Shown: piece by piece, positions 9,147 to 43,227 of the stretch | Layout: each line of letters opens with the position of its first letter | How positions within the stretch are numbered: position 1 is the first letter of the stretch | Source: Allobosea sp. | GTDB taxonomy: Bacteria; Pseudomonadota; Alphaproteobacteria; Rhizobiales; Beijerinckiaceae | Direction of reading: 5' to 3' | Assembly: GCF_017308015.1 (NCBI RefSeq) | Contig: NZ_JAFKFW010000008.1 | Location: 116,345-180,344, forward strand | DNA length: 64,000 nucleotides | Translations under genes and position numbers: made by a program | Notes under the pieces: generated by a model | Database searches by the model: none | Seen by the model: the letters and a program-made list of their open reading frames with translations, nothing else | Told to the model about the DNA's origin: nothing

Positions 9147-9970
9147 TCACGGCGGTAGGCTGGGCGCTCCGCCGGGATTTTGTAGCAGGATCGGGGGCTT
9201 GTTGCCGATGGCCCCGTGTGGCCGATCCTCGTTGTAGTATTTGACCCAAGCCTCCATCTTTTCGGCCGCATCCGCAAGGGTCAGGAACCAGTGCGTGTTC
9301 AGGCACTCGCTGCGGAAGCGTCCGTTGAACGCCTCGATGAAGGCGTTGTCGGTCGGTTTCCCCGGGCGGGAGAAGTCCAGTGTGACGCCCTTGGCATAGG
9401 CTCACAGGTCGAGGTCGCGGCTGACGAACTCGGACCCCTGATCGACCCGGATCGTCTTCGGATAGCCCAGTTTCGCGCAGACCCTCTCCAGCGTGGCGAC
9501 GACATCCTCGGCCCGGTAGCTGAAGCGGGGATCGACAGTCGGTGAGAAGCGCGAGAAGGTGTCGACCACCGTCAGCACTCGGATTTTGCGGCCTGTCGCC
9601 AGTTGGTCATGGACAAAATCCATTGCCCAGACATCGTTCGGCCGCGTCGCCGGCGCACGGTCCTCGCGCAGCTTCGCTTTGACCCGGCGCTTGGGCGTCT
9701 TGTTCCTGAGCTGCAAGCCTAACTCATTGTAGATCCTTGGAATCCGCTTCTGATTGACATGCCAGCCCTCGCGTCGCAGCAGCACGTCGACACGACGGTA
9801 GCCATAACGGACGCGGGTCTCGCAGATCGCCTTGATCCGGGCGGCCAAGGGGGCCTGGTCGGGCCGGCACGATTTGTAGTGGTGTCGAACTCCAGGACCG
9901 CACAGGCCCGCCGGATCGACACCTGCCACTCACCACAGATCAGGCCGACGAGCTCGCGCTTGCGACCAGG
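9147..9970 (-). pseudogene. IS3-family transposase OrfB, broken
   Basis: DDE integrase domain of an IS3-family element. The recognisable protein reads RIKAICETRVRYGYRRVDVLLRREGW, then DVWAMDFVHDQL (first catalytic Asp), VVDTFSRFS, IRVDQGSEFVSRDLDL (second Asp), a TGA stop complementary to 9402-9404 where the family has Trp, and then AYAKGVTLDFSRPGKPTDNAFIEAFNGRFRSE (catalytic Glu). A short deletion near 9881-9889 also shifts the frame between CAVLEFDTT and YKSCRPDQAP. With one nonsense codon and one frameshift it cannot make an active enzyme. Confidence 0.85.
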
Positions 9971-16515: not shown

Positions 16516-17613
16516 TCAGCCTTCACGGCCGAGCGCGTAGTCGGTGAAGCTCATGCCGAGTGCCTTCTCGACGATCGGATAGACGCTGGGATCGGTCACG
16601 CTGGAGCTCAGCGGGATCTTGCTCTTGGGCACGCGCAGCACCGAGAGCTCCATGCCCTCGCGGACATGGCCGGCGCTGACCGGCTGGCCGTCATTGTCCA
16701 GCGTGGTGATCACGTCGGGGAAGCAGGCGTGGCGGGCGCGGTCGAGATCGGTCACGGCCATGTATTCGTTCATGACATGGATGACGCGGGCGGCAGCCCC
16801 GGTCCCGACCTGGATCGTGCCGATGTCGAAGGCCTCGTTGGTGTAGCGCACGTCCTTCTTCGCGACGATGCCGCGCGCGATGATCGAGCCGCCGGTCTCG
16901 TCGCAGATCGCGTCGATCACGGCGCTGCCGCCCCTCGGCCTCGCGGCGATGATGCGCTCGCCCAGCGCCAGCGCCAGCGAAATGCCGCCCAGCGCCGCGT
17001 TCTTGCGGACATAGGCCGCCGAAACCGGGTTGCGGCAGGAGGCGATGAAGCCGCCCGACATGTCGGAAGCGGTGCGCAGGATCGGCGAGACCTTGGCCGT
17101 CGCGCCGCGCGTGACCAGCTCGATATACTGGTTCTTGGCGCGGTTGCCGCCGACCGCCACCTGGATCGTCGCCTCAGGGCTGTTGGCGAGGCCGATCGAG
17201 CCCATGTCGCCGGTGGGATGGGCGCGGATATCGCCGACGGCATCCACGACCTTCACTCCGAGGATGGCGCTCGGTAGCCAGGCGTTCAGCGTGCTCGACA
17301 TGCCGTTCTGGCCGATGATCAGGCCGTAGATCGGTTTGCCCAGCGCTTCCTGCAGGAGCTGCACCGCCTTGACGTAGTCGATGCCCCACATCTCCCACTC
17401 GGTCGTGCCGCCGGGCGCGCCGATGGCGGCGGCGGTGGCGATGATCGCGTCGTCGGGAATCTCGTCCATCGTGACGAGCTCGGGCCTGCCGGTATTGACC
17501 GCGGCGGTGCCCAGCATGCGGCCATGATCGGCCCAGCCGCCGCCGCCCGCTGCGAAGACGGATCCGCCGGCAACAGCGGCCTCGACGTCCCCGATGGTCA
17601 GAAAGCGCCTCAT
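16516..17613 (-). CDS. DUF917 family protein
   Basis: A 365-aa protein of the DUF917 family, which often accompanies hydantoinase and related genes. Visible features are GGSVFAAGGGGWADHGRML near the N-terminus, IIATAAAIGAPGGTTEWEMWG, GLIIGQNGMSSTLNAW and HPTGDMGSIGLANSP. No catalytic residues are established for the family. The start complementary to 17611-17613 has GAGG upstream; the in-frame GTG-type extension to 17646 is less likely. It is the first gene of the minus-strand hydantoin unit and is divergent from the LysR gene. A palindromic operator candidate lies 155 bp upstream. Confidence 0.85.
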   Translation of the reverse strand: MRRFLTIGDVEAAVAGGSVFAAGGGGWADHGRMLGTAAVNTGRPELVTMDEIPDDAIIATAAAIGAPGGTTEWEMWGIDYVKAVQLLQEALGKPIYGLIIGQNGMSSTLNAWLPSAILGVKVVDAVGDIRAHPTGDMGSIGLANSPEATIQVAVGGNRAKNQYIELVTRGATAKVSPILRTASDMSGGFIASCRNPVSAAYVRKNAALGGISLALALGERIIAARPRGGSAVIDAICDETGGSIIARGIVAKKDVRYTNEAFDIGTIQVGTGAAARVIHVMNEYMAVTDLDRARHACFPDVITTLDNDGQPVSAGHVREGMELSVLRVPKSKIPLSSSVTDPSVYPIVEKALGMSFTDYALGREG

Positions 17614-32291: not shown

Positions 32292-34019
32292 GTGAACTTG
32301 TCGACCCGTTCCGCCGACGGGGCCCCGCTCACGGCCCGATCTTCCTCTTCGGCCCGACAGAAGCTGATGCGGCTGCCGGACCGGTGCGGACAGGCGCGAA
32401 GCAGGTCCGCTTTCGTGCGGCTCGGCCTGGCGCTCGGCTGGCTGGCCCTGGCAGCTCTCGCCGGCCCCTCGGCCTTCGCGCAGCAGCGCCAGAAATTCGG
32501 ACTCGACGACGTGGTCGCCAGGGCCAGGGCGCTGGCCGAGGCGCCTTATGTCGCGCCGGTCAGCAACCTGCCCGACGTCTTCAGCAAGATGCAGTTCGCC
32601 GACTACCAGAAGATGCAGCCGAAGCGCGATCGCTTCGCCTGGATGGAATTCAAGACTCCGTTCAAGCTCGCCTTCTACCATCAGGGCATGCAGTTCAACA
32701 CGCCGGTGAAGATCAGTGAGATCGTCGACGGCGCCGCCCACGAGATCCCCTATGACGCCGGGCGCTTCGATTTCGCAGACCTGCATTTCGACCGTGAGGC
32801 GACCAGCAAGCTCGGCTGGGCCGGTTTCCGCGTGGTCTATCCGATCAACCAGCCCGGCAAGCTTGATGAGATCATGAGCGTGCTCGGCGCGAGCTATTTC
32901 CGCGTCATCGGCAAGAACCAGATCTATGGCCTGTCCGGGCGCGGGCTCGCGATCGATACCGGTCTGCCGATCGCCGAGGAGTTCCCCAATTTTCGCGAGT
33001 TCTGGCTGCGCCGTCCGAAGCCGAAGGACAAGCACCTGACCTTCTATGCGCTGATGGACTCGGTGCGCGCATCTGGCGCCTATGAATTCACGCTGACGCC
33101 GGGCGCGGACGCCGTGCTGAGCGTCAAGTCGCGGGTCTTTCTGCGACGGGACGCCTCGCCGACGACGATCGGCATCGCGCCTCTGACCAGCATGTTCCTC
33201 TACGGCCCGCAGCAGCCGTCGCCGACGCCGAATTTCCGCCCGGCGATCCATGATTCCAATGGGCTCGCCGTTCGTCGTGGCGACGGGGAATGGATCTGGC
33301 GCCCCCTGGTCAACCCCTCCATGGTCGCGATCAGCGATATCCCGGCGGAGAACCCGAAGGGCTTCGGCCTGCTCCAGCGTGGGCGCGATTTCTCGCGCTA
33401 CGAGGATCTGAAGGATCGCTACGATCTGCGTCCGAGCGCGTGGATCGAGCCGACCAACGACTGGGGCAAGGGCAATGTGCGCCTCGTCGAGATCCCGACC
33501 GCCGACGAGACCAACGACAATATCGTCACGCTCTGGGTGCCGGACGTGAGGCCTCCGTTCGGGGAGCCGATGCGCTTCGACTACCGCATGCACTGGACCA
33601 TGGACGAGCCGGCCCTGATGAAGGGCGACATTTCCCATGTCTGGCAGACGATGCGCTCGACCGGCGAGTTCTACCAGTCGAACCTGATCCGCGCCGGGGA
33701 CGGCACGCTGGCCTTCCTGATCGACTTCAAGGGCCCCTCGCTGCGCAAGCTGCCGAGGGATGCGAGGCCCACGGCCGTCGTCGGCGCCAACGACAATGTC
33801 GAGATCGTCGGCACTGAACTGCAGCCCAATCCGGCGATCCAGGGCTGGCGCCTGAGCTATCGGATCAAGATCAGGAATCCGGCGGTCTCATCCGATCTCG
33901 ACGCTGTCCTGAAGCTTGGCGATCGTACCCTCACCGAGACCTGGAAGTTCAGGTTGCCGCCGACGCAGGCGGCGACGAACAAGGAAACCTACCTCAACCG
34001 CTTCAAGGCGATGGAGTAG
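32292..34019 (+). CDS. opgG: Periplasmic glucan biosynthesis protein
   Basis: Needed for synthesis or branching of osmoregulated periplasmic glucans. The 575-aa protein starts at GTG 32292 after a strong AAGGAGG. A hydrophobic segment, FVRLGLALGWLALAALAGPSAFAQ, lies at about residues 41-64, after a long basic N-region and with likely cleavage after FAQ. The mature domain starts FGLDDVVARARALAEAPY and contains FAYHQG-like FKLAFYHQGMQFNTPVKI, GASYFRVIGKNQIYGLSGRGLAIDTG, TSMFLYGP and RPAIHDSNGLAV, as in MdoG/OpgG/OpgD. No opgH glucosyltransferase gene is adjacent. The gene is convergent with the response-regulator gene. Confidence 0.93.
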   Translation: MNLSTRSADGAPLTARSSSSARQKLMRLPDRCGQARSRSAFVRLGLALGWLALAALAGPSAFAQQRQKFGLDDVVARARALAEAPYVAPVSNLPDVFSKMQFADYQKMQPKRDRFAWMEFKTPFKLAFYHQGMQFNTPVKISEIVDGAAHEIPYDAGRFDFADLHFDREATSKLGWAGFRVVYPINQPGKLDEIMSVLGASYFRVIGKNQIYGLSGRGLAIDTGLPIAEEFPNFREFWLRRPKPKDKHLTFYALMDSVRASGAYEFTLTPGADAVLSVKSRVFLRRDASPTTIGIAPLTSMFLYGPQQPSPTPNFRPAIHDSNGLAVRRGDGEWIWRPLVNPSMVAISDIPAENPKGFGLLQRGRDFSRYEDLKDRYDLRPSAWIEPTNDWGKGNVRLVEIPTADETNDNIVTLWVPDVRPPFGEPMRFDYRMHWTMDEPALMKGDISHVWQTMRSTGEFYQSNLIRAGDGTLAFLIDFKGPSLRKLPRDARPTAVVGANDNVEIVGTELQPNPAIQGWRLSYRIKIRNPAVSSDLDAVLKLGDRTLTETWKFRLPPTQAATNKETYLNRFKAME

Positions 34020-34052: not shown

Positions 34053-34074
34053 CGCGGGATCAGACGATCCCGCG
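34053..34074. terminator. Hairpin at convergent ends of opgG and response-regulator gene
   Basis: CGCGGGATC and GATCCCGCG form a perfect 9-bp stem with an AGAC loop. The right arm overlaps the last codons of the response-regulator gene, whose stop is complementary to 34060-34062. It could end both transcripts, though no U-tract follows. Confidence 0.5.
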
Positions 34075-34752
34075 CCGCATCGCTTCGACGGCAGCCTCTG
34101 CGCGCGACGAGACGTTGAGCTTGCGGTAGATGCTCTTGACGTAGCCGGCCACGGTGTGCGGCGTGAGGCCAAGCACGCGGGCCGCTTCCGGAGTGCGCAG
34201 TCCCTTCCCGATCAAGGCCAGAACCTCCTGCTCGCGTGGCGTGAGCGCGATCGGTTCGACAGCCGGTTCCGGTCGCCGGCGGGCGAAATGGGCCATGATG
34301 CGTTGCGCGACCGACGGCGAGAGCGGCGGTTCGCCCATGTCGATGCGGTGGAGGTAGCGCACCATCGTCTCTTCGTGCTGGTCCTTCAGCAGATAGCCCT
34401 GTGCTCCGGCGGCAATGGCTTCGAACAGGTGCTGGTCGTCGTCGTAGATCGTCGTCACGATCGGGCTCAGGCCCGAATGGTTCGCTGCGATCTCGCGGAT
34501 CAGGTCGATGCCCGAGCCGTCCGGCAGACCGATATCCACGAGCGCGATATCATCCGGCCCGCCCGGGCTTTCCCGTACGCGCATATCGTGCAGGCAGATT
34601 CGGGCCGCCGACAGCGAGGCCGCTTCCCGCACAATGATCTCCGGGAAGGCGGTCTTCAGCATCGCGGCGAGCCAGCGCCGCGTATCGGGCCTGTCCTCGA
34701 CGACGAGGCCGATGCGATCCGAGTGGCGCGGGGAGGTCGGGAGATTCATCAT
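34060..34752 (-). CDS. NarL/LuxR-type response regulator
   Basis: A 230-aa two-component regulator. The receiver domain covers about residues 14-135, with acidic VVEDRPDTRR, phospho-acceptor Asp73 in ALVDIGLPDGSG, and the conserved Lys in YLLKDQHEE. The C-terminal GerE/LuxR HTH spans about 163-228 (LTPREQEVLALIGKGLRTPEAARVLGLTPHTVAGYVKSIYRKL). Its gene follows the histidine kinase gene by 76 bp on the same strand, so they are a cognate pair. They come directly after the RiPP exporter gene. The targets could include the peptide operon. This is the ComA/NarL architecture. Confidence 0.93.
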   Translation of the reverse strand: MMNLPTSPRHSDRIGLVVEDRPDTRRWLAAMLKTAFPEIIVREAASLSAARICLHDMRVRESPGGPDDIALVDIGLPDGSGIDLIREIAANHSGLSPIVTTIYDDDQHLFEAIAAGAQGYLLKDQHEETMVRYLHRIDMGEPPLSPSVAQRIMAHFARRRPEPAVEPIALTPREQEVLALIGKGLRTPEAARVLGLTPHTVAGYVKSIYRKLNVSSRAEAAVEAMRRGIV

Positions 34753-34828
34753 CGGGCATGCGCCAGGGACGCGGGGGAACGATCATATCTCACGATAGGC
34801 CCCGCCCGATCGGCCTGCGACCCCGCGA

Positions 34829-37042
34829 TCATGGGGACCGGGCCGGGGTCGCGATGGCTTCCGTGGCCGGGTATCCGGGCGCCTGCAACGGCAGCGACAC
34901 GCTGATGCAAGTGCCGCGCGGGGTCGGCTCGATCCCGAACGTGCCGCCGAGTTCGATGAGCCGGCGCCTGAGGCCGCGCAGCCCATGGCCGGTTCGGGCT
35001 TCGTCTTCGGGCGATGCCGGCAGGCCTACCCCATCGTCGCGAATCCGCATTGCAAGAGCGTTCTCCGACAATGCGATCGAAACCTCGACGACATGGGCGC
35101 CAGCGTGACGGATGACGTTCGTGACCAACTCGCGATGAAGCGAGATCAGGCTGCGATAGACGGGGTAGTCCAGCAGGGTTTCGGCGTCCGTCCTTCCTTC
35201 CATCTGCCAGGCCAGCTCGATGCCGGCCATGTCGAGCCTGTCGGCGGTTTCGTGGCGGAGCGCCGCGAGCACCTGCGCGAGCGGCAGGCGTTCTGCCGAG
35301 AGGCCGCCGACGATCGAGCGGATATCGGCGAGCGCATCGCGCAGCACGCGCTGGACATCGCCGGTCTCGCTCTTGTGCAGCCCGGAGAGCAGGCGCGCGC
35401 CGACATCGTCATGCAGGTCGCGGGCGATGCGCTGGCGCTCCTCCGTCCGCCCGCGCTCGAACTCGCTGCGGCTCGTCTCGGAGTAACGCATCATCCGGAC
35501 GAGCTGTTCGGCGAGCTTGGCGTCGCGGGAGCCGAATAGGCGCTGCCCGCCCCAACCATAGCGGAGCATCAGGGCCTGCGTGTCCGCGACGGCGGGGACT
35601 GCGAGATCGAGCCCGTCGCGCCGGATCGCCACGCCTGTACGGGCATCCTCCACAGTGGCGAGGTCGACCGGCTCGAACAGCCGCATCAGCAGCGCGCGCC
35701 AGAGGCGTGAGCGTTCGGCCGGCGAGGGCGTGAAGGAGATGTCGACCACGGCCTCGAACAATTCATGCCGTTCGACGCTGCGCCGCTCGACCAGTCGCTC
35801 CCAGAACAAAGTCCGCAAGGGCAGATAGGCGAAGCCGACGAAGAGCAGAGAAAGCCCGAGCGATGTCGCCGGCTGCAGATGCAGCAGGACGATCAGGAGG
35901 GCGTCTGCGGCCAGCAGCACAAGCAGGCCGCCGGCATAAAACAGGATGCGGAAGGCCCATTCGTCGAGATCGAACAGGCGATAGCGCGAGACGCCGAGCG
36001 CAAGCCCGGCATAGATCAGCAGGAAGAAGCCGAAGGCATGGCCCTGCTGCAGCACCGGCGTCGTATCGAACAGAACCGGGCTGATGATCAGCAGGATGAA
36101 GGGCAGCGCCCCGACGATCACCGACAAGCCGAGCCAGCGCAGGACCGCACGTCCGCGCGCATCCTTTCGCACCGCGACGCGCTGGGCGATCACCAGCGCG
36201 ATGATGGCGAGCATCTCCAGCATCGTCGGCAATTGCGCGCCCATCTGCGGATTAGGCAGGGCGTGGCTGAGATTGCTCAGGCTCCAGACGGTCACGACGA
36301 TGCAGACGAGGCCAGGCACCCATCCTGGCGCCAGCCGGCGCGGGTAGATCAGGAACAGGCTGATCATCACCGCGCCGAACCCGACGGCACCGATATGGTT
36401 GAGTCCGCTGAGCAGGCGGAACAGGCCGCCGTCGATCGCGAGCTCGCGCGAGGAATAGACGGCCGCCGCGAAGGCCGAGAGCATGACCATCCCGCCCGAC
36501 AGGGCGAAGAGTTGTGTCGGAGGATCGCGTGGGCGCAGGGCAAGCACCCAGGCGCCGATCAGCAGGGCGCCGGAGCCCGTGACGAGCTGAACCCAGAAGG
36601 CCGAGGGCAGGCTGGTGATCGGGCGGGATGCCGTTCGGATCTGTACGGCCACGTCGTTGCCGCCATCCACGCCCAGGCGCAGATCGACATCTCCGGAGGC
36701 GAGGATCGATGCCAGCTCGCTCTGCCGGGCGAAGAAGCGGCGCACGGCCTCGTAGCTGGCGATGACGTCCGGCTCCTCGATGACATCGGTCGCGTCGAGC
36801 CGGATCGCGGCACTCGTGGTGCCAGCAGGTGCGATCGAGATCAGGCGACCGGGTTTCACCCTGTCATGGCCGGGGCCGTCGGGGGCGACAGCGATGATCC
36901 GGACCGTATCGTCGGACGTATCGCCCGACAGCGCCAGTCCGAGCCAGGGCTGGCGCAAGGTGAGCGTCAGGACAACGAGCGCCGCGGTGAAGCAGAGAAT
37001 GATCGCAGCCTGCAGGATGCGGCTCGGAAGCCAGAAAGCCAT
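34829..37042 (-). CDS. Multi-TM sensor histidine kinase with extracytoplasmic PDZ-like domain (ComP-like)
   Basis: A 737-aa membrane kinase. TM1 is about residues 8-29. An extracytoplasmic region of about 30-145 begins QPWLGLALSGD and continues VRIIAVAPDGPG..RVKPGRLISI, which looks like a PDZ fold. About eight or nine further TM segments lie between 147 and 408. The cytoplasmic part has the HisKA_3 dimerisation helix with phospho-acceptor His544 in RIARDLHDDVGARLL, the N-box HRELVTNVIRHAGAH, the G1 motif IRDDGVGLP and the G2 region GHGLRGLRRRL. PDZ plus many TM segments plus HisKA_3 is the layout of ComP-type peptide sensors. The gene lies 201 bp downstream of the RiPP exporter on the same strand and 76 bp before the response regulator. 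A ligand from the adjacent peptide locus is inference. Confidence 0.9.
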   Translation of the reverse strand: MAFWLPSRILQAAIILCFTAALVVLTLTLRQPWLGLALSGDTSDDTVRIIAVAPDGPGHDRVKPGRLISIAPAGTTSAAIRLDATDVIEEPDVIASYEAVRRFFARQSELASILASGDVDLRLGVDGGNDVAVQIRTASRPITSLPSAFWVQLVTGSGALLIGAWVLALRPRDPPTQLFALSGGMVMLSAFAAAVYSSRELAIDGGLFRLLSGLNHIGAVGFGAVMISLFLIYPRRLAPGWVPGLVCIVVTVWSLSNLSHALPNPQMGAQLPTMLEMLAIIALVIAQRVAVRKDARGRAVLRWLGLSVIVGALPFILLIISPVLFDTTPVLQQGHAFGFFLLIYAGLALGVSRYRLFDLDEWAFRILFYAGGLLVLLAADALLIVLLHLQPATSLGLSLLFVGFAYLPLRTLFWERLVERRSVERHELFEAVVDISFTPSPAERSRLWRALLMRLFEPVDLATVEDARTGVAIRRDGLDLAVPAVADTQALMLRYGWGGQRLFGSRDAKLAEQLVRMMRYSETSRSEFERGRTEERQRIARDLHDDVGARLLSGLHKSETGDVQRVLRDALADIRSIVGGLSAERLPLAQVLAALRHETADRLDMAGIELAWQMEGRTDAETLLDYPVYRSLISLHRELVTNVIRHAGAHVVEVSIALSENALAMRIRDDGVGLPASPEDEARTGHGLRGLRRRLIELGGTFGIEPTPRGTCISVSLPLQAPGYPATEAIATPARSP

Positions 37043-37243
37043 CGTTCGATGTTTTTCGCCATCCCGGCCGTCCTGCGGACCGCCCTCATGGCGCCCCTCC
37101 GTTACGAGCCGCGCGACAACATTGCAGCGTTTCCCGGCGGTGTCGACGGTATATTCCCCTGCGTCATCGCAAAAACGGCTGGTTTCGGGCCTTCTCGTAA
37201 AGGAGCGCCTTGTTATGCCGGCTCGTGCTATGGGTCGCCAACT

Positions 37244-38968
37244 TCAGGCCGCCTCTCCTGCTGCGGCGGGCGCATCGTCGAGCCGCAGGATGCGATCCAT
37301 CCGCGCGGCTACGCTCTCGCGGTGGGTGATGGCGATCACGGCCGCCTGGGCATGCCGTTGCAGCAGTGCGTCGAGCACCTGCTTCTCCGTCGCCGCATCC
37401 AGGGCCGAGGTGCTCTCATCGAGGATCAGGATGTCGGGCGTGACGAGCATGGCGCGTGCCAGCCCCAGCCGCTGCTTCTGTCCGGCCGAGAGCTCGACGC
37501 CGCCCTGTCCCAGCATGGTGTCGTAGCCGGCCGGCAGATTGCCGATATCGCCATCGAGCCCTGCCGATGTCGCGGCCGCGACGATCGCATCACGGCCGGC
37601 ATGGGGTGCCGGCAGGCCGATGTTCTCCGCGACGCTGCCGGTGAAGACATCGATCTCGTGGGGCACGACGACGACGCGGCGGCGCCAAATGCCGAGCGGG
37701 ATGTCGGTTGCCGCGAAGGAGCCGAGCCGGATGCTGTCCGTGCCGTGCCGGGCACGGATCAGCAGGTTTGCCAGCGTGCTCTTGCCGATCCCGCTGCGCC
37801 CGACGAGCGCCATCCTCTCGCCCGGTGCAAGCGTGAACGAGAGACGCTGGATCACCGGCCTGTCCGCGACGCCGTAGGAAAAGCTCAGTCCAGATACGCA
37901 GAGCGCGGCGGGAGGAAGGTCACCGGGCTCGTGATCGCCGTCGATCGCCTCGTGCGGCGGCTGCGCCAGTGTGCGCAGCCGGATCGCCGCGACGCTCGCC
38001 GCCTGCAGGTCGTCCACCACCTTGAGCAGGGCGAGCGCTGGTGCGGTCAACGCGCCGCCCAGTGACAGGAGCAGGACGAAGGTGCCGATGCTGGCTTCTC
38101 CCCCCGCGACACGCCAGCCGGCCAGCAGCGTCACCACTGCGATGATCGCGCCGCTTGCGACCCGGCCGGCGCTGTCGAGCAGGGTCGAGAGCCGGATCAC
38201 CGCGAGATGCGCTGCGTTGTCGCCGTCGAGCCGCTCGGTGAAACGCCTTTCGGCAAAGCCATGGGCATTGTTGCGCCGGATCGTCTCGACATAGGCGATG
38301 GCCTCGATCAGATGCGCCCAATAGCGGCTGCGCATCTCGAACCAGGTGATCTCCCGCTGGCGCAGCGTCGTGGCGGCGGCGACGTGAAGGGCCGCGAGCA
38401 GTCCGACGAGCGCGCCAACGGACAGGCCGATGCGCCAGTCGGTCGCCAGCATCGCCCCGAGCAGCACGGCGACCATGCCGAAGCCGAGTGCGAACTCGAT
38501 CAACCGCTCGCCCGCACCCTGCGCCAGCCGGTCGACCTCCTCGAAGCTCTGGCCGAGCATGCCCTGATCTCCGGCGAGCGGGCTGTCGGCCGGCAGCCGC
38601 AGCATCGTGCCGAAGGCTGGAAGCAGCATGTCGCGCCGCAGAGCCAGCGCTGCCCGCGCCGCGAGCACGCGCCGGGCGCAGGCCAGACCGCCATCGACGA
38701 TGCCGATGGCGAGGAGCAACCCGGCAATGCCGGCGACGAGCCCGGTTTCGCGCCCGGCCAACCCATCGTCGATCAGTCGCGCCAGAAGCCATGGCGGAAC
38801 GAAGGCGATCAGGCTGAGGGCCACGGCGACCGCGAGCGCCGGAAGCGTGCGCCGCCGCTGCCACCAGAGCATGCGCGCGAGCAGCCCGGTCACGCCCGTC
38901 CGCTCCGAGGCCGGAACCTCTCCGAGCAGGGCGGCGAGCAGGGCCGGAGGAGGCAGCCGGGGTGTCAC
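37244..38968 (-). CDS. Exporter-type ABC transporter (fused membrane and ATPase domains) of the graspetide-like locus
   Basis: A 574-aa half-transporter. About six TM segments lie in residues 42-310. The ATPase domain follows: Walker A VGRSGIGKST (389-398), signature LSAGQKQRLGLARAM (493-507), Walker B ILILDEST (513-520) and switch His549. There is no N-terminal C39 peptidase domain, so it does not cut a leader itself. The start is the GTG at 38966-38968, giving a four-base GTGA overlap with the ATP-grasp stop. Coupling to a peptide-modifying ligase indicates export of the modified peptide as a homodimer. The leader protease is not obvious in the window. Confidence 0.9.
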   Translation of the reverse strand: MTPRLPPPALLAALLGEVPASERTGVTGLLARMLWWQRRRTLPALAVAVALSLIAFVPPWLLARLIDDGLAGRETGLVAGIAGLLLAIGIVDGGLACARRVLAARAALALRRDMLLPAFGTMLRLPADSPLAGDQGMLGQSFEEVDRLAQGAGERLIEFALGFGMVAVLLGAMLATDWRIGLSVGALVGLLAALHVAAATTLRQREITWFEMRSRYWAHLIEAIAYVETIRRNNAHGFAERRFTERLDGDNAAHLAVIRLSTLLDSAGRVASGAIIAVVTLLAGWRVAGGEASIGTFVLLLSLGGALTAPALALLKVVDDLQAASVAAIRLRTLAQPPHEAIDGDHEPGDLPPAALCVSGLSFSYGVADRPVIQRLSFTLAPGERMALVGRSGIGKSTLANLLIRARHGTDSIRLGSFAATDIPLGIWRRRVVVVPHEIDVFTGSVAENIGLPAPHAGRDAIVAAATSAGLDGDIGNLPAGYDTMLGQGGVELSAGQKQRLGLARAMLVTPDILILDESTSALDAATEKQVLDALLQRHAQAAVIAITHRESVAARMDRILRLDDAPAAAGEAA

Positions 38969-39954
38969 GGTGCCTCGAGCAGATCCGCCATCGCCTCCGC
39001 CATCGGCGCGCCCGTCGCGAGCTCGACCCAGTACCATTGGCCGTTGGGGTTGAGCTCGAGGAAGACGTGCTCGCCTTCGGGCGTGACGATCAGGTCGAAG
39101 GCGCCGAAGCGTAGGCCGCACTGCTTCAGATAGGCCCGCAGAGCCTTGTCGACATCCGGCCGCAAGGGCTCGATCCGGTGCGGCAGCTTGATCGTGTCGA
39201 CGGCGCGCCAGTCCTGCTCGGCCCCTGCGACGCCCTGGCTGTCGATCCGGCAATTGAACAGGCGATCACCGACGATGGTGACGCGCAACTCGTGGTCCTT
39301 CTCGATCGCCTCCTGCAGATAGGTAGGGCAGAGTGCGATCGAGGCCTTCAGCGCGGCGAATTCGCCGGGCGGGACGCGGCGCGTATAGGCGACGTGATGG
39401 GCGCCGTCGATATAATGGCTGCCCATCAGCATCGGTTTGCAGATCACCCCGTCCGGGCAAGTCGCGAAGAAGGCTTCCGCCGCCTCGGGATCATTGGTGA
39501 TGATCGAGCGGGGCACGCGCAGGCCCAGGCTCTGCGCCAGCCGCAGTTGCGGGAATTTGCGCTGGTGGCGCCGGTTCTCGTCGGGGTTGTTGATCCATGG
39601 CACGCGGCTATCCATGGGCAGGAAGCCCATGAACTCGCGCATCTCGTCCCTGACATACTCGACGATGCCCTCATCCTCGATGCCCGGCGGCGGCAGCGAC
39701 GGCTCCGGCTTGCGCATCCAGACCGCGCGCAGGCCCTGCGGGAAGACGCAGGAGCGGCCCCAGCGATCGGCGATGCGGATCGTGCCCTCGACACCATCCG
39801 CCATCGCAACGCGATATTCCTCGTGGAAATGATCGGTGTTGAGGCGGAAGCACGGCACGGCTCGTTTTTCCAGGATCGCGAGCACCGCATCGACATGCGG
39901 GTCGAGCTTGGTGGAGATCATCAGGACGGCCGGTAGGGTCTGGGTCGCAGGCAT
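38965..39954 (-). CDS. ATP-grasp peptide ligase, MvdC/MvdD (graspetide) type
   Basis: Expected to join Ser/Thr or Lys side chains to Asp/Glu side chains of a precursor peptide by ATP-dependent ester or amide formation. The 329-aa protein has the family layout: N-terminal VLMISTKLDPHVDAV and FRLNTDHF, AVWMRKPEP (79-85) as in MvdD-type ligases, WINNPDENRRHQRKFPQLRLA (120-140), GLRVPRSIITND, KPMLMGSHYID (173-183), YLQEAIEKDHELRVTIVGD, and the metal-binding FLELNPNGQWYWVE (298-311; Glu300 and Asn302). It sits 68 bp after the putative precursor gene and overlaps the exporter gene by four bases. RimK-like ligases are the nearest alternative, but the WxRKP and NPNGQWxW signatures favour the peptide-maturase group. 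Confidence 0.88.
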   Translation of the reverse strand: MPATQTLPAVLMISTKLDPHVDAVLAILEKRAVPCFRLNTDHFHEEYRVAMADGVEGTIRIADRWGRSCVFPQGLRAVWMRKPEPSLPPPGIEDEGIVEYVRDEMREFMGFLPMDSRVPWINNPDENRRHQRKFPQLRLAQSLGLRVPRSIITNDPEAAEAFFATCPDGVICKPMLMGSHYIDGAHHVAYTRRVPPGEFAALKASIALCPTYLQEAIEKDHELRVTIVGDRLFNCRIDSQGVAGAEQDWRAVDTIKLPHRIEPLRPDVDKALRAYLKQCGLRFGAFDLIVTPEGEHVFLELNPNGQWYWVELATGAPMAEAMADLLEAP

Positions 39955-40022
39955 CGGCGGCTTCGGCGGCGAGGGAAGGGGGCGGGGCCGGAAGGCCGGT
40001 CCCGCATTCGGGCTGATGCCGT

Positions 40023-40253
40023 TCAGTTGCCGAGGACGTCCGAGGACAGATCCGAATCGGAGATGCGGCCCGAGGTCGAGGTCACGTTCCGGGAGGTCGA
40101 CGACTTGTGGAACAGCACCGTGCCGCGCCAGGTCTGCGTCTCCGCATCATAATAGCCGAGCTCGCCGTCCTCGTACTGCTCGAGGGCGTAGGGCTTGGAA
40201 TTGGCGAGGACGAACGGCAGCGGCGTGCTGGCAGGCTGGGCTTGAATCTGCAT
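40023..40253 (-). CDS. Putative graspetide precursor peptide (76 aa)
   Basis: A small peptide directly upstream of the ATP-grasp ligase. Residues 1-50 form a leader-like region with PLPFVLANSKPYALEQYEDG and GYYDAETQTW. The PF.L....P...YD...Q spacing recalls leaders of ATP-grasp-modified peptides. Residues 51-76 are core-like: hydroxyl clusters SSTS (51-54) and TSTS (58-61), then Asp66, Asp68 and Asp72 in ISDSDLSSDVLGN. Three acidic acceptors after two Ser/Thr clusters fit formation of side-chain esters. No Cys is present. An AAAGGG ribosome-binding site lies about seven bases before ATG 40253. The precursor role is inferred from size, composition and position. Confidence 0.72.
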   Translation of the reverse strand: MQIQAQPASTPLPFVLANSKPYALEQYEDGELGYYDAETQTWRGTVLFHKSSTSRNVTSTSGRISDSDLSSDVLGN

Positions 40254-40356
40254 GGGCGACCCTTTGCGATGAGCGCGCCCGCGATCGGACGCCGGAGCAC
40301 TATGGGAGGCCGTGACGTAGCGGTAATCCCCCTGTTCACGGGGCCTTCATGGCTGC

Positions 40357-40725
40357 TCAGTTGATCAGAGCGAGAGCTTTGCCGTCGACGGGCGCACCGA
40401 AATCGACGAGCGCAGCCACGGCTTTCGCAGCCTCCTCCCGGCTGGCGAAGCTGGCTGTGAAGTTGCGCCAGCTCTGCCTCGGCGTGAAGGTCAGCCGCTC
40501 GCCGAACCGGTAGCTCAGGCTGATGGAGGCGAGATCGTCATAGGCGAGGACATGCCGCCGCAGCACACGGATCGTGACGGCACGCGGTCCGATGACGAGG
40601 CTGGGAAAGAGGCTGTTATGGCTCAGCGCGATGAGCGGCAGCCGTTGCAGGCCGCTGAACGTCGCCAGTGGCGTCAGTGTGACGTCGGCGTTGCCGGTAT
40701 CCTGTCGGGGCTGGGCGTGGCTCAC
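40357..40725 (-). CDS. Unknown soluble protein (122 aa) in graspetide-like locus
   Basis: No family recognised. The 122-aa chain has no membrane segment. Alternating hydrophobic strands (LPLIALSHNSLFPSLVIGPRAVTIRVLRRHVLAYDDLASISLSY, then RLTFTPRQSWRNFTASFASREEAAKAVAALV) suggest a small beta-barrel followed by a C-terminal helix, in the manner of bacterial PH-like domains. It starts at GTG 40725 in a four-base GTGA overlap with the 3-TM gene, so it is the fourth gene of a tightly coupled run. A 103-bp gap separates it from the precursor gene. That gap holds an imperfect CCCC..GGGG hairpin near 40328-40343. Confidence 0.75.
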   Translation of the reverse strand: MSHAQPRQDTGNADVTLTPLATFSGLQRLPLIALSHNSLFPSLVIGPRAVTIRVLRRHVLAYDDLASISLSYRFGERLTFTPRQSWRNFTASFASREEAAKAVAALVDFGAPVDGKALALIN

Positions 40726-41066
40726 ACGTCACCTGTCGCGAGAATGGCGAGGCGGGCGGTACCGTAGACGAACAGCCAGAGCAGGAGCAGCAGGCAGAGA
40801 CAGCCGAAGAGAACCGCCCCCCAGAACCAGGCTGGCTCCTTGTCCCGGTCGATCGGGAAGGGGCGCGACGGCACGATCCCGGTTCTCAGCGCATCGGCGA
40901 TCTCGCATGCGAGCAGGACGAGAAGTCCGGTGGAACAAACGAGACCGAGGAGCGCACTGGTCAGTTCGGGAAATCGCGCGGCTTCTGCCAGGGCGGCGTA
41001 GAGACCGAGCCCGAGGCCGCCGCAGAGCAGCGTCGTCGATGCGATCCGGGCCAGATGCTCCTTCAC
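40722..41066 (-). CDS. Small membrane protein with three TM segments (114 aa)
   Basis: Three hydrophobic segments at about residues 9-30 (STTLLCGGLGLGLYAALAEA), 36-57 (LTSALLGLVCSTGLLVLLACEI) and 80-107 (FWGAVLFGCLCLLLLLWLFVYG). A hydrophilic loop, SRPFPIDRDKEPA, lies between the second and third. No family recognised. The GTG start at 41066 overlaps the stop of the spermidine-synthase-like gene (GTGA), and its own stop overlaps the next gene. It may be an accessory of the membrane enzyme or the exporter. It is supported mainly by coupling and by its clear membrane pattern. Confidence 0.75.
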   Translation of the reverse strand: MKEHLARIASTTLLCGGLGLGLYAALAEAARFPELTSALLGLVCSTGLLVLLACEIADALRTGIVPSRPFPIDRDKEPAWFWGAVLFGCLCLLLLLWLFVYGTARLAILATGDV

Positions 41067-42619
41067 TGCCGCTGTTCCCCGGCACAGAGGGCGCGGCCAT
41101 CCAGAAGCCTGTCGACCGGTGCATGATCGTCGGTCAGCAGAGTCGCACACCGACCCCATGGCGTGGCCGGGTCGGAGCCGGAGTCGAAGCGCCGCCACGT
41201 CACATGAGCGGCCGATGGAGCCTCCCCGGCCGCCATGATGCTGACGGGAACCGTGATCCTGTCCGGGCGCAGCGCGGCTCCGGCATTCTTCCAGGCTGCG
41301 ACGACAGCGTTGGTCGTCCGCTCCGTCGTGGCACCTTCCGCCAGCCAGATGTCGACGGCCGCATAGTCTCCGGACAGAGTCCTGGCGAGGCTGCGCGCCA
41401 GCAGCAGGGTGTCTCCCCTGTCGATCACGTTCGACAGGAAGACACCGGCCTCGTTCAATCTGGCGTGGACGAGCGCTCCGAATTCCCGCGTGACCAGATG
41501 TGGGGGAACGGTGCGTGTCCGGTAGGCGTCCATCAGAACCACGTCCTGGGCCGGCACCGGAGCCAGGCTGCGCAGGACATTCCTTCCGTCCCCGATCACA
41601 GTGCGCAACCGCGGGCCGGTTGCTGCCATCCGTGTCGCCGCCTGCGTCGCGACGACAGGATCGAGCTCTGCGACGACGACGGAAACCAATGGCGAACCGT
41701 TCGCCCAGGCGCGCGGAAGCGTCGCGCCGCCGCCGCCGATCACGAGCGCGCGGGGCTCCGTCGAGCGGGAGAAGGCGGCGGCGGCGAGGTGATCCGTCAA
41801 CGCGGCGTAACCGAGATGGAGCGTGCGGGGCGCGTCGAGATCGCTGGCGCTGTGGACGCCCTCGTCCAGGATCATGAAGCGCAGGCGCGTTCCCTGCGGG
41901 GAGCGGGTGTCGAGATAGCGGATGCAGGTATAGCGCGACTCGACGGTGCAGGGGCTGCCTTCGCCCGCCAGCGCCGCAGCCATGCCGGCAAGCAGCGGCA
42001 TGCCGGCATGGAGCAGCGCGGAGGTGCCGCCGTCGCGCCAGGGCAGGAAGGGCAGTCCGATTCCGGCCCACGCTGCCGCTGCCATGGCGGCGAGCCCGGC
42101 CGCACCGATTTGCTCCAGCAGCCAGAAGCCGGCTGCGGCTGTCCCTGCGACGCTGCCGGCGGCGGAGGCGGCATAGATCGTCGCCACGCGCCGGCCGAGA
42201 CCCGGCAGGCCTTGCGCCAGTTGCAGGCGCAGAGCCAGCGGCGTCACGAAGCCGGCGGCAAGGCTGGGCGGCAGAGATAGGGCGGTGAGGCCGATGACGG
42301 AGCCGGCGCCGTCTTCCGTCGCGAGCGCCCGCGCAATGGGCGATGCAAGAGCAGGCATCGCCAGCGTGGCGCCGCTCGCCCACAGGCAGGCCGCCGCCAG
42401 GAATTGCTTCAGGCGTCCGGCCTGTGCTTCCGGACCGCCGGCGCGGCCGCCGAGGACATGCCCGAGCGTGAGCCCGAGCAGAACCGTCGTGATCGCAGCG
42501 GTCCATGGCAGCAGCGACTGGCCGACATGCGGAGCGGCCAGCCGCACGATGGCGAGTTCGACCGCTAGGCAGGCCGCGGCGGACAGGAAGACGGCGGCGG
42601 GCAGCAGTGCTGCGCTCAT
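41063..42619 (-). CDS. Membrane-anchored spermidine-synthase-like (aminopropyltransferase-fold) protein
   Basis: A 518-aa fusion of an N-terminal membrane domain and a C-terminal Rossmann methyltransferase/aminopropyltransferase fold. About six TM segments lie in residues 3-215, including VFLSAAACLAVELAIVRLAAP, TVLLGLTLGHVLGG and FVTPLALRL. The soluble part has VIGGGGATLPRAW (293-305, SAM or dcSAM loop), AELDPVV (317-323), VIGDGRNVLRSL (341-352), LMDAYR (362-367) and LTDDHAPVDRLL (495-506), all typical of fused MFS/spermidine synthases. The start overlaps the preceding gene (ATGA). In the RiPP setting it may aminopropylate or methylate the peptide, as MccD does in microcin C7; that is inference. 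A general polyamine or surface role is the alternative. Confidence 0.85.
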   Translation of the reverse strand: MSAALLPAAVFLSAAACLAVELAIVRLAAPHVGQSLLPWTAAITTVLLGLTLGHVLGGRAGGPEAQAGRLKQFLAAACLWASGATLAMPALASPIARALATEDGAGSVIGLTALSLPPSLAAGFVTPLALRLQLAQGLPGLGRRVATIYAASAAGSVAGTAAAGFWLLEQIGAAGLAAMAAAAWAGIGLPFLPWRDGGTSALLHAGMPLLAGMAAALAGEGSPCTVESRYTCIRYLDTRSPQGTRLRFMILDEGVHSASDLDAPRTLHLGYAALTDHLAAAAFSRSTEPRALVIGGGGATLPRAWANGSPLVSVVVAELDPVVATQAATRMAATGPRLRTVIGDGRNVLRSLAPVPAQDVVLMDAYRTRTVPPHLVTREFGALVHARLNEAGVFLSNVIDRGDTLLLARSLARTLSGDYAAVDIWLAEGATTERTTNAVVAAWKNAGAALRPDRITVPVSIMAAGEAPSAAHVTWRRFDSGSDPATPWGRCATLLTDDHAPVDRLLDGRALCAGEQRQ

Positions 42620-43227
42620 GCCGGCCGCCTCGAAGCAGCGACGGATCCGGCCGCTGCGGTGACGGCCGCGGCCAGAATGCCGAGCGCTGCGATGGCGATA
42701 CAGGTCCCGCGCGCACCGAGCAGATCCAGCCCGAGCCAGAGCACGCTGAGCGCTCCGGCGGCGCTGCCGGCGGCCCCGGCCGCATTGGCGAGCCCCACCA
42801 GTGCGCCGCGTCCGCCACCGCGTTCGATGATCGCCAGCATCAGCAGGGGCGGCGCGATGCCGAGCAGGACGCCAGGCATGAGCGTCGGCACGGCCGCGAA
42901 AACCACCATGCGCCAGCGGGCGAGCGGATCCGGTGCCACGATCCACGCGTCGAGGGCCGGCAACAGGGATGGCGTGAGGGCGATGGCGATCGTCCCGGCG
43001 AGCATCGCAGCGGCTGCCCTGAACAGGGAGAGACGCATCGATCCTGCGGTGCAGGCGCCGCCAAGATGGTTTCCGAGCGCCCAGGAGAGAAGAAAGCCGG
43101 CGATGATCGCGGTCCAGCTATCGGTGGACAGACCGGCATAGGGGGCGACGAGCCGCGCCGTCGCGGTCTCGAAGGCGAGCGCGCAGAAGGCGGTGAGAGC
43201 TTCGGCCAGAAGCAGGGCGGGTATCAT
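42616..43227 (-). CDS. Stand-alone membrane domain of spermidine-synthase-like family (203 aa)
   Basis: Homologous to the membrane half of the next gene: EALTAFCALAFETATARLVAPYAGLSTDSWTAIIAGFLLSWALGNHLGG corresponds to its VELAIVRLAAPHVGQSLLPW...LGHVLGG segment. About six TM helices fill the chain, and it ends soon after the last one with no catalytic domain. The start complementary to 43225-43227 is the only one that begins with a helix. It is the first gene of the coupled run 43227 to 40357 (all four-base overlaps). It is probably a duplicated partner subunit; a relic is possible, but the frame and coupling are intact. Confidence 0.8.
   Translation of the reverse strand: MIPALLLAEALTAFCALAFETATARLVAPYAGLSTDSWTAIIAGFLLSWALGNHLGGACTAGSMRLSLFRAAAAMLAGTIAIALTPSLLPALDAWIVAPDPLARWRMVVFAAVPTLMPGVLLGIAPPLLMLAIIERGGGRGALVGLANAAGAAGSAAGALSVLWLGLDLLGARGTCIAIAALGILAAAVTAAAGSVAASRRPA

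What the first reader, a model, noticed from the sequence alone, without database searches (positions are those of the whole stretch)
34060..43227. Graspetide-like RiPP locus with membrane aminopropyltransferase-like proteins and a ComP/ComA-like sensor pair
Nine genes run in the same direction. The first four are joined by four-base overlaps. A 76-aa Ser/Thr/Asp-rich peptide, an MvdC/MvdD-type ATP-grasp ligase and an ABC exporter follow, and directly after them a multi-TM PDZ-like HisKA_3 kinase and its NarL-type regulator. A modified peptide, its exporter and a membrane sensor of the ComP layout suggest peptide signalling by a side-chain-crosslinked peptide in an alphaproteobacterium. I know of no described system with this combination. 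The peptide, ligase and exporter assignments come from sequence; the signalling link is inference from order and strand.
Basis: partly seen in the sequence, partly recalled or inferred. Interest (0 to 1): 0.87.

Follow-up and report, generated by a model that had tools for sequence, protein, structure and literature searches.

The report
Self-regulated crosslinked-peptide gene module
A bacterium, probably Bosea, carries a compact gene module that makes a probable side-chain-crosslinked peptide and seems to switch itself on through its own membrane sensor and DNA-binding regulator, a pairing kept in every close relative of the peptide-making enzyme that was found.

Summary
In detail: nine minus-strand genes at 34060-43227 encode a 76-aa precursor, a graspetide-type ATP-grasp ligase, an ABC exporter without C39 peptidase, two SpdSyn-like membrane proteins, two small proteins, and a HisKA_3 kinase with a NarL-type regulator. 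The pair accompanies 9 of 9 ligases of this clade in four arrangements; 0 of 47 other ATP-grasp loci examined have it. New here: a 16-bp operator (CCCC-N8-GGGG) directly 5' of a -35-like hexamer, with a -10-like element exactly 23 bp on in 17 of 23 sites, precedes the peptide gene (9/9 loci, weak in one), the SpdSyn operon (7/7) and the regulator (7/7). In the home genome the strict pattern occurs at two places, both in this locus. The kinase ectodomain is predicted PDZ-like. Against peptide signalling: the kinase family stands alone in eight other genomes without the peptide, its ectodomain varies while the peptide is near-invariant, and three relatives add an envelope protein (EipB-like). 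I favour a periplasmic or envelope cue, with peptide autoinduction as main rival. New variant of a known kind.

The parts
42616..43227 (-). spdTM: 203-aa membrane protein like the membrane half of MFS_SpdSyn
   Evidence: NF037959 positions 4-182, 71.8 bits; kept in 7 of 9 loci
41063..42619 (-). fused MFS/spermidine-synthase-like protein, 518 aa
   Evidence: NF037959 325.9 bits; only match at E 1e-10 in the home genome
40722..41066 (-). 114-aa membrane protein, GTG start, 4-bp overlaps on both sides
   Evidence: tblastn homologues in L009, L012, L013, L015
40357..40725 (-). 122-aa protein of unknown family
   Evidence: tblastn homologues in L011 and L015 only
40328..40343 (-). operator 1, CCCCGTGAACAGGGGG, of the peptide operon; -35-like 40322-40327 (ATTACC), 17 bp, -10-like 40299-40304 (CATAGT)
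   Evidence: single exact match to CCCNNGAACNGGGGG in the genome
40023..40253 (-). precursor peptide, 76 aa; leader with LPFVLANxKP...YDxxxQTW, core SSTSRNVxSTSGRxSDxDLxSDVLGN
38965..39954 (-). graspetide-type ATP-grasp ligase, 329 aa
37244..38968 (-). ABC exporter (membrane + ATPase), no C39 peptidase domain found
34829..37042 (-). sensor histidine kinase: TM1, PDZ-like ectodomain (about aa 31-148), about 8 TM helices, HisKA_3 + HATPase_c
34821..34836 (-). operator 3, CCCCATGATCGCGGGG, overlapping the kinase 3' end, upstream of the regulator; -10-like TATCGT 34792-34797
   Evidence: one of only two CCCCNNGANCNNGGGG places in the genome
34060..34752 (-). NarL-type response regulator, 230 aa
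43299..43314 (-). operator 2, TCCCCCGAAACGGGGG, of the spdTM operon; -35-like CTGGCA, at +23 CGTAAT (does not fit nAnnnT)

Best explanation
A self-contained, self-amplifying graspetide module. The ligase crosslinks Ser/Thr and Asp side chains in the C-terminal half of the 76-aa precursor and the ABC protein exports the product (inferred from families). The kinase reads a periplasmic or envelope cue through its PDZ-like ectodomain and membrane bundle and phosphorylates the regulator (inferred). The regulator binds a 16-bp CCCC-N8-GGGG operator abutting the -35-like element of the peptide operon, the SpdSyn operon and its own gene, and activates all three (operator architecture shown by comparison; binding and activation inferred). 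The cue is more likely a periplasmic protein end or envelope disturbance than the peptide itself, so the peptide would be an output tied to the envelope; this last step is the least certain.
Against: No experiment. Taken singly, operators 2 and 3 (leave-out scores 12.8 and 11.6) do not exceed the best score of shuffled 64-kb windows (mean maximum 12.8, highest 15.5 of 60); only operator 1 (20.2) does. In six of the other eight genomes the strict pattern also hits elsewhere, in G812 and G665 it misses the locus, and backward controls are sometimes higher (G817: 1 versus 22; G816: 6 versus 11). One of the 14 training sites (L011 pep) was entered one base out of register. L012, L013 and L015 are close kin, so the loci are not nine independent cases. 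L014 and L081 have no spd genes. No operator was seen 5' of the kinase in the window. EipB-like is absent from the window's module. The PDZ match is modest: the tool gives 7-8 as a typical best Z for models without a clear match.
Confidence: 0.5

Rival explanations
1. Peptide autoinduction: the exported, crosslinked peptide is itself the ligand of the PDZ-like, 8-TM kinase, closing a positive loop through the operators, so that the module works like ComX-ComP-ComA with a crosslinked peptide.
For: Peptide operon and regulator gene share one operator type, a positive-feedback layout. PDZ folds generally bind peptide C-termini (recalled), and the last residues VLGN are invariant in 7 precursors. 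Core under strong purifying selection, unlike a diversifying antimicrobial. L014 and L081, with different cores, also have the most divergent linked kinases.
Against: Kinase family found without peptide in 8 genomes. The ectodomain is 38-54% identical to the window's in L009-L013 and L015 (33% in L014), lower than the membrane and kinase parts, although the core is near-invariant. Solo kinases match the window's ectodomain (34-39%) about as well as the linked ones other than L009 (33-40%), and none of the 15 positions that separate the 7 linked kinases from the 8 solo ones lies in the ectodomain.
Confidence: 0.3
2. The kinase detects an antibiotic or toxic peptide, foreign or its own, and the module is a defence or self-immunity response in which exporter and SpdSyn-like proteins protect the membrane.
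For: The exporter gene follows the peptide gene under operator 1 and membrane proteins follow operator 2. EipB-like envelope protein in three modules.
Against: No dedicated resistance protein was recognised among the nine genes; precursor and ligase are biosynthetic and present in all nine loci.
Confidence: 0.12
3. Chance neighbourhood: the kinase pair is an unrelated two-component system next to a graspetide cluster.
For: Kinase family also occurs alone; the linked kinases are not one clade.
Against: 9 of 9 versus 0 of 47 loci, four arrangements, and a shared operator-promoter design at pep, spd and RR genes.
Confidence: 0.04

Closest known systems
Graspetides (microviridin, plesiocin, fuscimiditide types); survey groups of PMC8939145 and PMC13097080
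   Same: MvdC/MvdD-type ATP-grasp ligase next to a small precursor with a proline-aromatic leader motif and a Ser/Thr/Asp-rich core; ABC exporter
   Different: Dedicated HisKA_3-NarL pair and SpdSyn-like membrane proteins. PMC8939145 section 7 names histidine-kinase-like ATPases (pfam13581, mostly actinobacterial) and OmpR regulators; a term search of the main text of PMC13097080 gave no 'histidine kinase' and no 'response regulator'. Supplements were not readable.
ComX-ComP-ComA peptide signalling (recalled, not compared by sequence here)
   Same: Modified small peptide, multi-TM HisKA_3 kinase, NarL-type regulator in one locus
   Different: Gram-negative host, ATP-grasp chemistry, ABC exporter, operators at the peptide and regulator promoters; ligand unknown; kinase family also found without a peptide
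PDZ-bearing periplasmic proteases and stress sensors (DegS/HtrA, CtpA, Prc)
   Same: Predicted fold of the kinase ectodomain
   Different: Here joined to a membrane bundle and a histidine kinase, not a protease; no Foldseek match reached E 0.001
EipB (PF08904), envelope-integrity protein of Rhizobiales
   Same: Divergent paralogue in 3 of 9 modules (97.6-111.6 bits; copies elsewhere in the genomes 246-316 bits)
   Different: Not in the window's module

Membership tests
Graspetide biosynthetic cluster | MvdC/MvdD-family ATP-grasp macrocyclase | tested here: met
   PDB profile hits AMdnB 7m4s E 2.7e-52, 5ig8 and 5ig9 (ATP grasp ligases; MdnB and MdnC recalled), CdnC 7mgv; NCBIfam TIGR04187/04185/04184, all below their cut-offs
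Graspetide biosynthetic cluster | Adjacent precursor with leader motif and Ser/Thr plus Asp/Glu core | tested here: met
   Precursor in 9 of 9 loci; P13-F14-V15-L16 fits Phhx(1,2)h in 7 of 9, L014 and L081 have A for P; three invariant core Asp (66, 68, 72) in 7
Graspetide biosynthetic cluster | Side-chain ester or amide crosslinks in the product | not testable with these tools
   needs mass spectrometry
NCBIfam TIGR04187 subfamily | Score above the curated cut-off of 350 bits | tested here: not met
   254.4 bits
ComP/ComA-type peptide signalling | Multi-TM HisKA_3 kinase with NarL-type regulator | tested here: met
ComP/ComA-type peptide signalling | Kinase activated by the co-encoded peptide | not testable with these tools
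ComP/ComA-type peptide signalling | Kinase family bound to a peptide gene | tested here: not met
   8 kinase loci without peptide, ligase or this exporter; none in trans by peptide profile
C39 peptidase-containing exporter (PCAT) | C39 peptidase domain | tested here: not met
   Pfam finds only ABC_membrane and ABC_tran above cut-off
Polyamine aminopropyltransferase (SpeE) | Catalytic D-x-x-D motif (role recalled) | tested here: not met
   DAYR aligned to DGSD/DSSD of solved enzymes
MFS_SpdSyn NF037959 | Score above the curated cut-off | tested here: met
   325.9 versus 40 bits
PDZ domain (kinase ectodomain) | Fold match | tested here: inconclusive

The most novel reading that the evidence does not exclude
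A crosslinked (graspetide) peptide acts as an autoinducing signal in Alphaproteobacteria, read by a PDZ-plus-membrane-bundle histidine kinase that binds the peptide's free C-terminal tail, and amplified through a CCCC-N8-GGGG operator that controls only this module: a Gram-negative peptide-pheromone circuit with graspetide chemistry.
Probability: 0.28. Interest if true: 0.92.

Novelty: new variant of a known kind. Interest (0 to 1): 0.72.

Why it matters
What graspetides do for their makers is mostly unknown (my recollection of the field). A dedicated sensor-regulator pair with a defined operator gives a handle: a reporter on operator 1 would show which cue turns the peptide on, and whether the peptide itself is that cue. 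It would also define a histidine-kinase family with a PDZ-like ectodomain in Alphaproteobacteria whose solo members seem to control something else, perhaps a small RNA.

Tried and rejected

Rows dropped: of the 41 loci, seven (51-89% identity) were taken as the clade; the other 34 and 13 more were checked only by tblastn (one generic regulator hit, L083, 28% identity), and 4 of those 47 are shorter than 6.5 kb. Three weak ATP-grasp loci (L003, L007, L008) and G741 were not examined for kinases, nor were the 84 plasmid records.
Full report
What is there. The window lies in a 4.89-Mb genome, probably Bosea, since the nearest locus (89% ligase identity) is a Bosea MAG. Nine genes run on the minus strand from 43227 to 34060. 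Four-base overlaps join genes 1-4 and also ligase and exporter. The exporter has no C39 peptidase and no protease gene was recognised among the nine, so how the leader is removed is unknown.

The peptide. Seven sequences, window included, share 53 of 76 positions and 29 of the last 34. In all 21 pairs synonymous codon changes outnumber the others. Nitrobacter (L014) and G665 (L081) have a related leader (xFVxxN...GYYDPxSQxW) but different cores. With three invariant core Asp (66, 68, 72) and many invariant Ser/Thr, at most three esters on these Asp are expected; connectivity cannot be read from sequence.

Rarity. The ligase was found in 2 of 37 same-genus genomes. In a class-wide sample, 6 of 385 genomes have any relative at E 1e-10, the home genome included. 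In an order-wide sample 13 of 397 have a relative at E 1e-20, of which only the home genome (679.5 bits) and G665 (424.4 bits) belong to this clade; the rest score 211 bits or less. A scan of genome contigs gave 41 loci, seven of them at 51-89% identity (L009-L015).

Does the kinase pair stay? Yes, with this ligase clade. All seven relatives and L081 carry kinase and regulator close by, so 9 of 9 with the window. These loci were found through the ligase, so this says nothing about kinases elsewhere. The order differs: downstream and co-directional (window, L009), divergent upstream of spdTM (L010-L013, L015), convergent downstream (L014), divergent from the peptide (L081). Of 47 other ATP-grasp loci none has a kinase, precursor or SpdSyn homologue at E 1e-3. 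In the ligase tree the nine form one clade (100/98) against nine others without the pair. The SpdSyn-like genes are in 7 of 9 and were not found in the L014 and L081 genomes at E 1e-10.

Does the pair occur without the peptide? Also yes. The kinase's sensor region is found in three of 61 near genomes (own, G017, G041) and in 8 of 385 class genomes, own included. The eight non-cluster cases (L060-L067) have a regulator beside the kinase but no peptide, ligase or SpdSyn match and only generic ABC matches within the 15-20 kb fetched; the peptide profile finds nothing in those genomes. Linked kinases are not one clade. So the kinase family is older or wider than its graspetide partnership, and in the even class sample it is more often alone than linked.

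The operator. Aligning upstream regions showed a shared 16-mer before the peptide gene in the nine loci (weakest in L081) and before spdTM. A matrix from 14 of these sites then put a site in the kinase-regulator intergenic region among the best five hits of each of the seven SpdSyn-type loci. Orientation was taken from the gene that follows and the register in runs of G was set by eye; one training site was a base out of register. The 23 sites (9 pep, 7 spd, 7 RR) have CCCC-N8-GGGG, mostly exact, then a -35-like hexamer, and nAnnnT exactly 23 bp after the operator in 17 of 23, against 0-1 of 23 at offsets 14-22. The six without nAnnnT are pep of L010, L011, L014 and L081, and spd of the window and L009. 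Distances from operator to start codon run from 63 to 150 bp. In seven loci, 25 of 31 CCCCN8GGGG matches fall in the three spots (0.54 expected by length; overlapping registers counted), and 19 of 21 spots are hit. With a matrix trained without the two Bosea loci, the window's three best hits are these three sites. In the home genome the stricter CCCCNNGANCNNGGGG occurs at two places, both in this locus, with 0 in the control. Placing an activator next to a poor -35 is what class II activation looks like (recalled). Limits: operators 2 and 3 are not significant alone; in six of eight other genomes the strict pattern also hits elsewhere, in G812 and G665 it misses the locus, and some backward controls are higher than the counts.

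Envelope hints. L010, L012 and L015 carry an EipB-like gene divergent from the peptide gene, preceded in L012 and L015 by an operator with TGCCGA, 17 bp, TACGGA. These are divergent copies; a high-scoring copy elsewhere is seen in 7 of 9 genomes and was not found in G813 and G817. EipB is described as a periplasmic envelope-integrity protein of Rhizobiales (PMC10787603, passages only).

Reading. Shown by comparison: a conserved module with its own sensor-regulator pair and a shared operator-promoter design. Inferred: binding, activation, export, crosslinking, and the cue. I put a periplasmic or envelope cue first because the kinase family occurs without a peptide elsewhere, its ectodomain does not track the near-invariant core, and an envelope gene joins the module in three relatives. 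Peptide autoinduction stays a serious rival.

Novelty. The two graspetide surveys I could read in part (PMC8939145: outline, sections 5 and 7, passages; PMC13097080: outline, section 7, passages) do not describe this pair or SpdSyn-like proteins in the text seen; a full-text search for graspetide with spermidine synthase found no paper, and graspetide with histidine kinase found only PMC8939145. Their supplements were not readable, so the cluster may be listed there. I rate it a new variant of a known kind.

Noticed in passing
L062:7300-7600, L063:7210-7515, L067:7540-7855 (minus strand): Solo kinase-regulator loci of one genus have CCCCTGTTCCGGGG just 3' of the regulator, pointing into about 300 bp with conserved hairpins with GCCGGGGGGC loops and, in L062, a hairpin followed by T runs. 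16 of 56 predicted pairs have changes on both sides in 3 sequences. Candidate regulator-controlled small RNA; Rfam has no match. Long open frames exist in this G+C-rich DNA, so coding is not excluded.
   Followed up: partly
L009:16803-17336 (minus), operator at 17391: A 178-aa ORF with a signal-peptide-like start (by eye) follows the 16-mer CCCCCTGTTCCGGGGA (same as in L063 and L067) and a -10-like TAGGCT at +23; no Pfam match, no homologue in the fetched loci.
   Followed up: partly
L010:6138-6995, L012:6629-7453, L015:5630-6472 (minus): EipB-like paralogues inside the module, scoring about 100 bits against 246-316 for copies elsewhere.
   Followed up: yes
L013 genome (G816), four contigs; also G814:C69: CCCCCTGAGCCGGGGG occurs four times in G816, three of them about 110 bases from a contig start, probably a repeat unrelated to the operator.
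   Followed up: no
window 9402-9929 (minus): ORF resembling an IS3-type transposase fragment by eye; not searched.
   Followed up: no
window 32292-34019 (plus): MdoG periplasmic glucan biosynthesis protein (573.8 bits), convergent with the regulator; no match near the module in the seven relatives.
   Followed up: no
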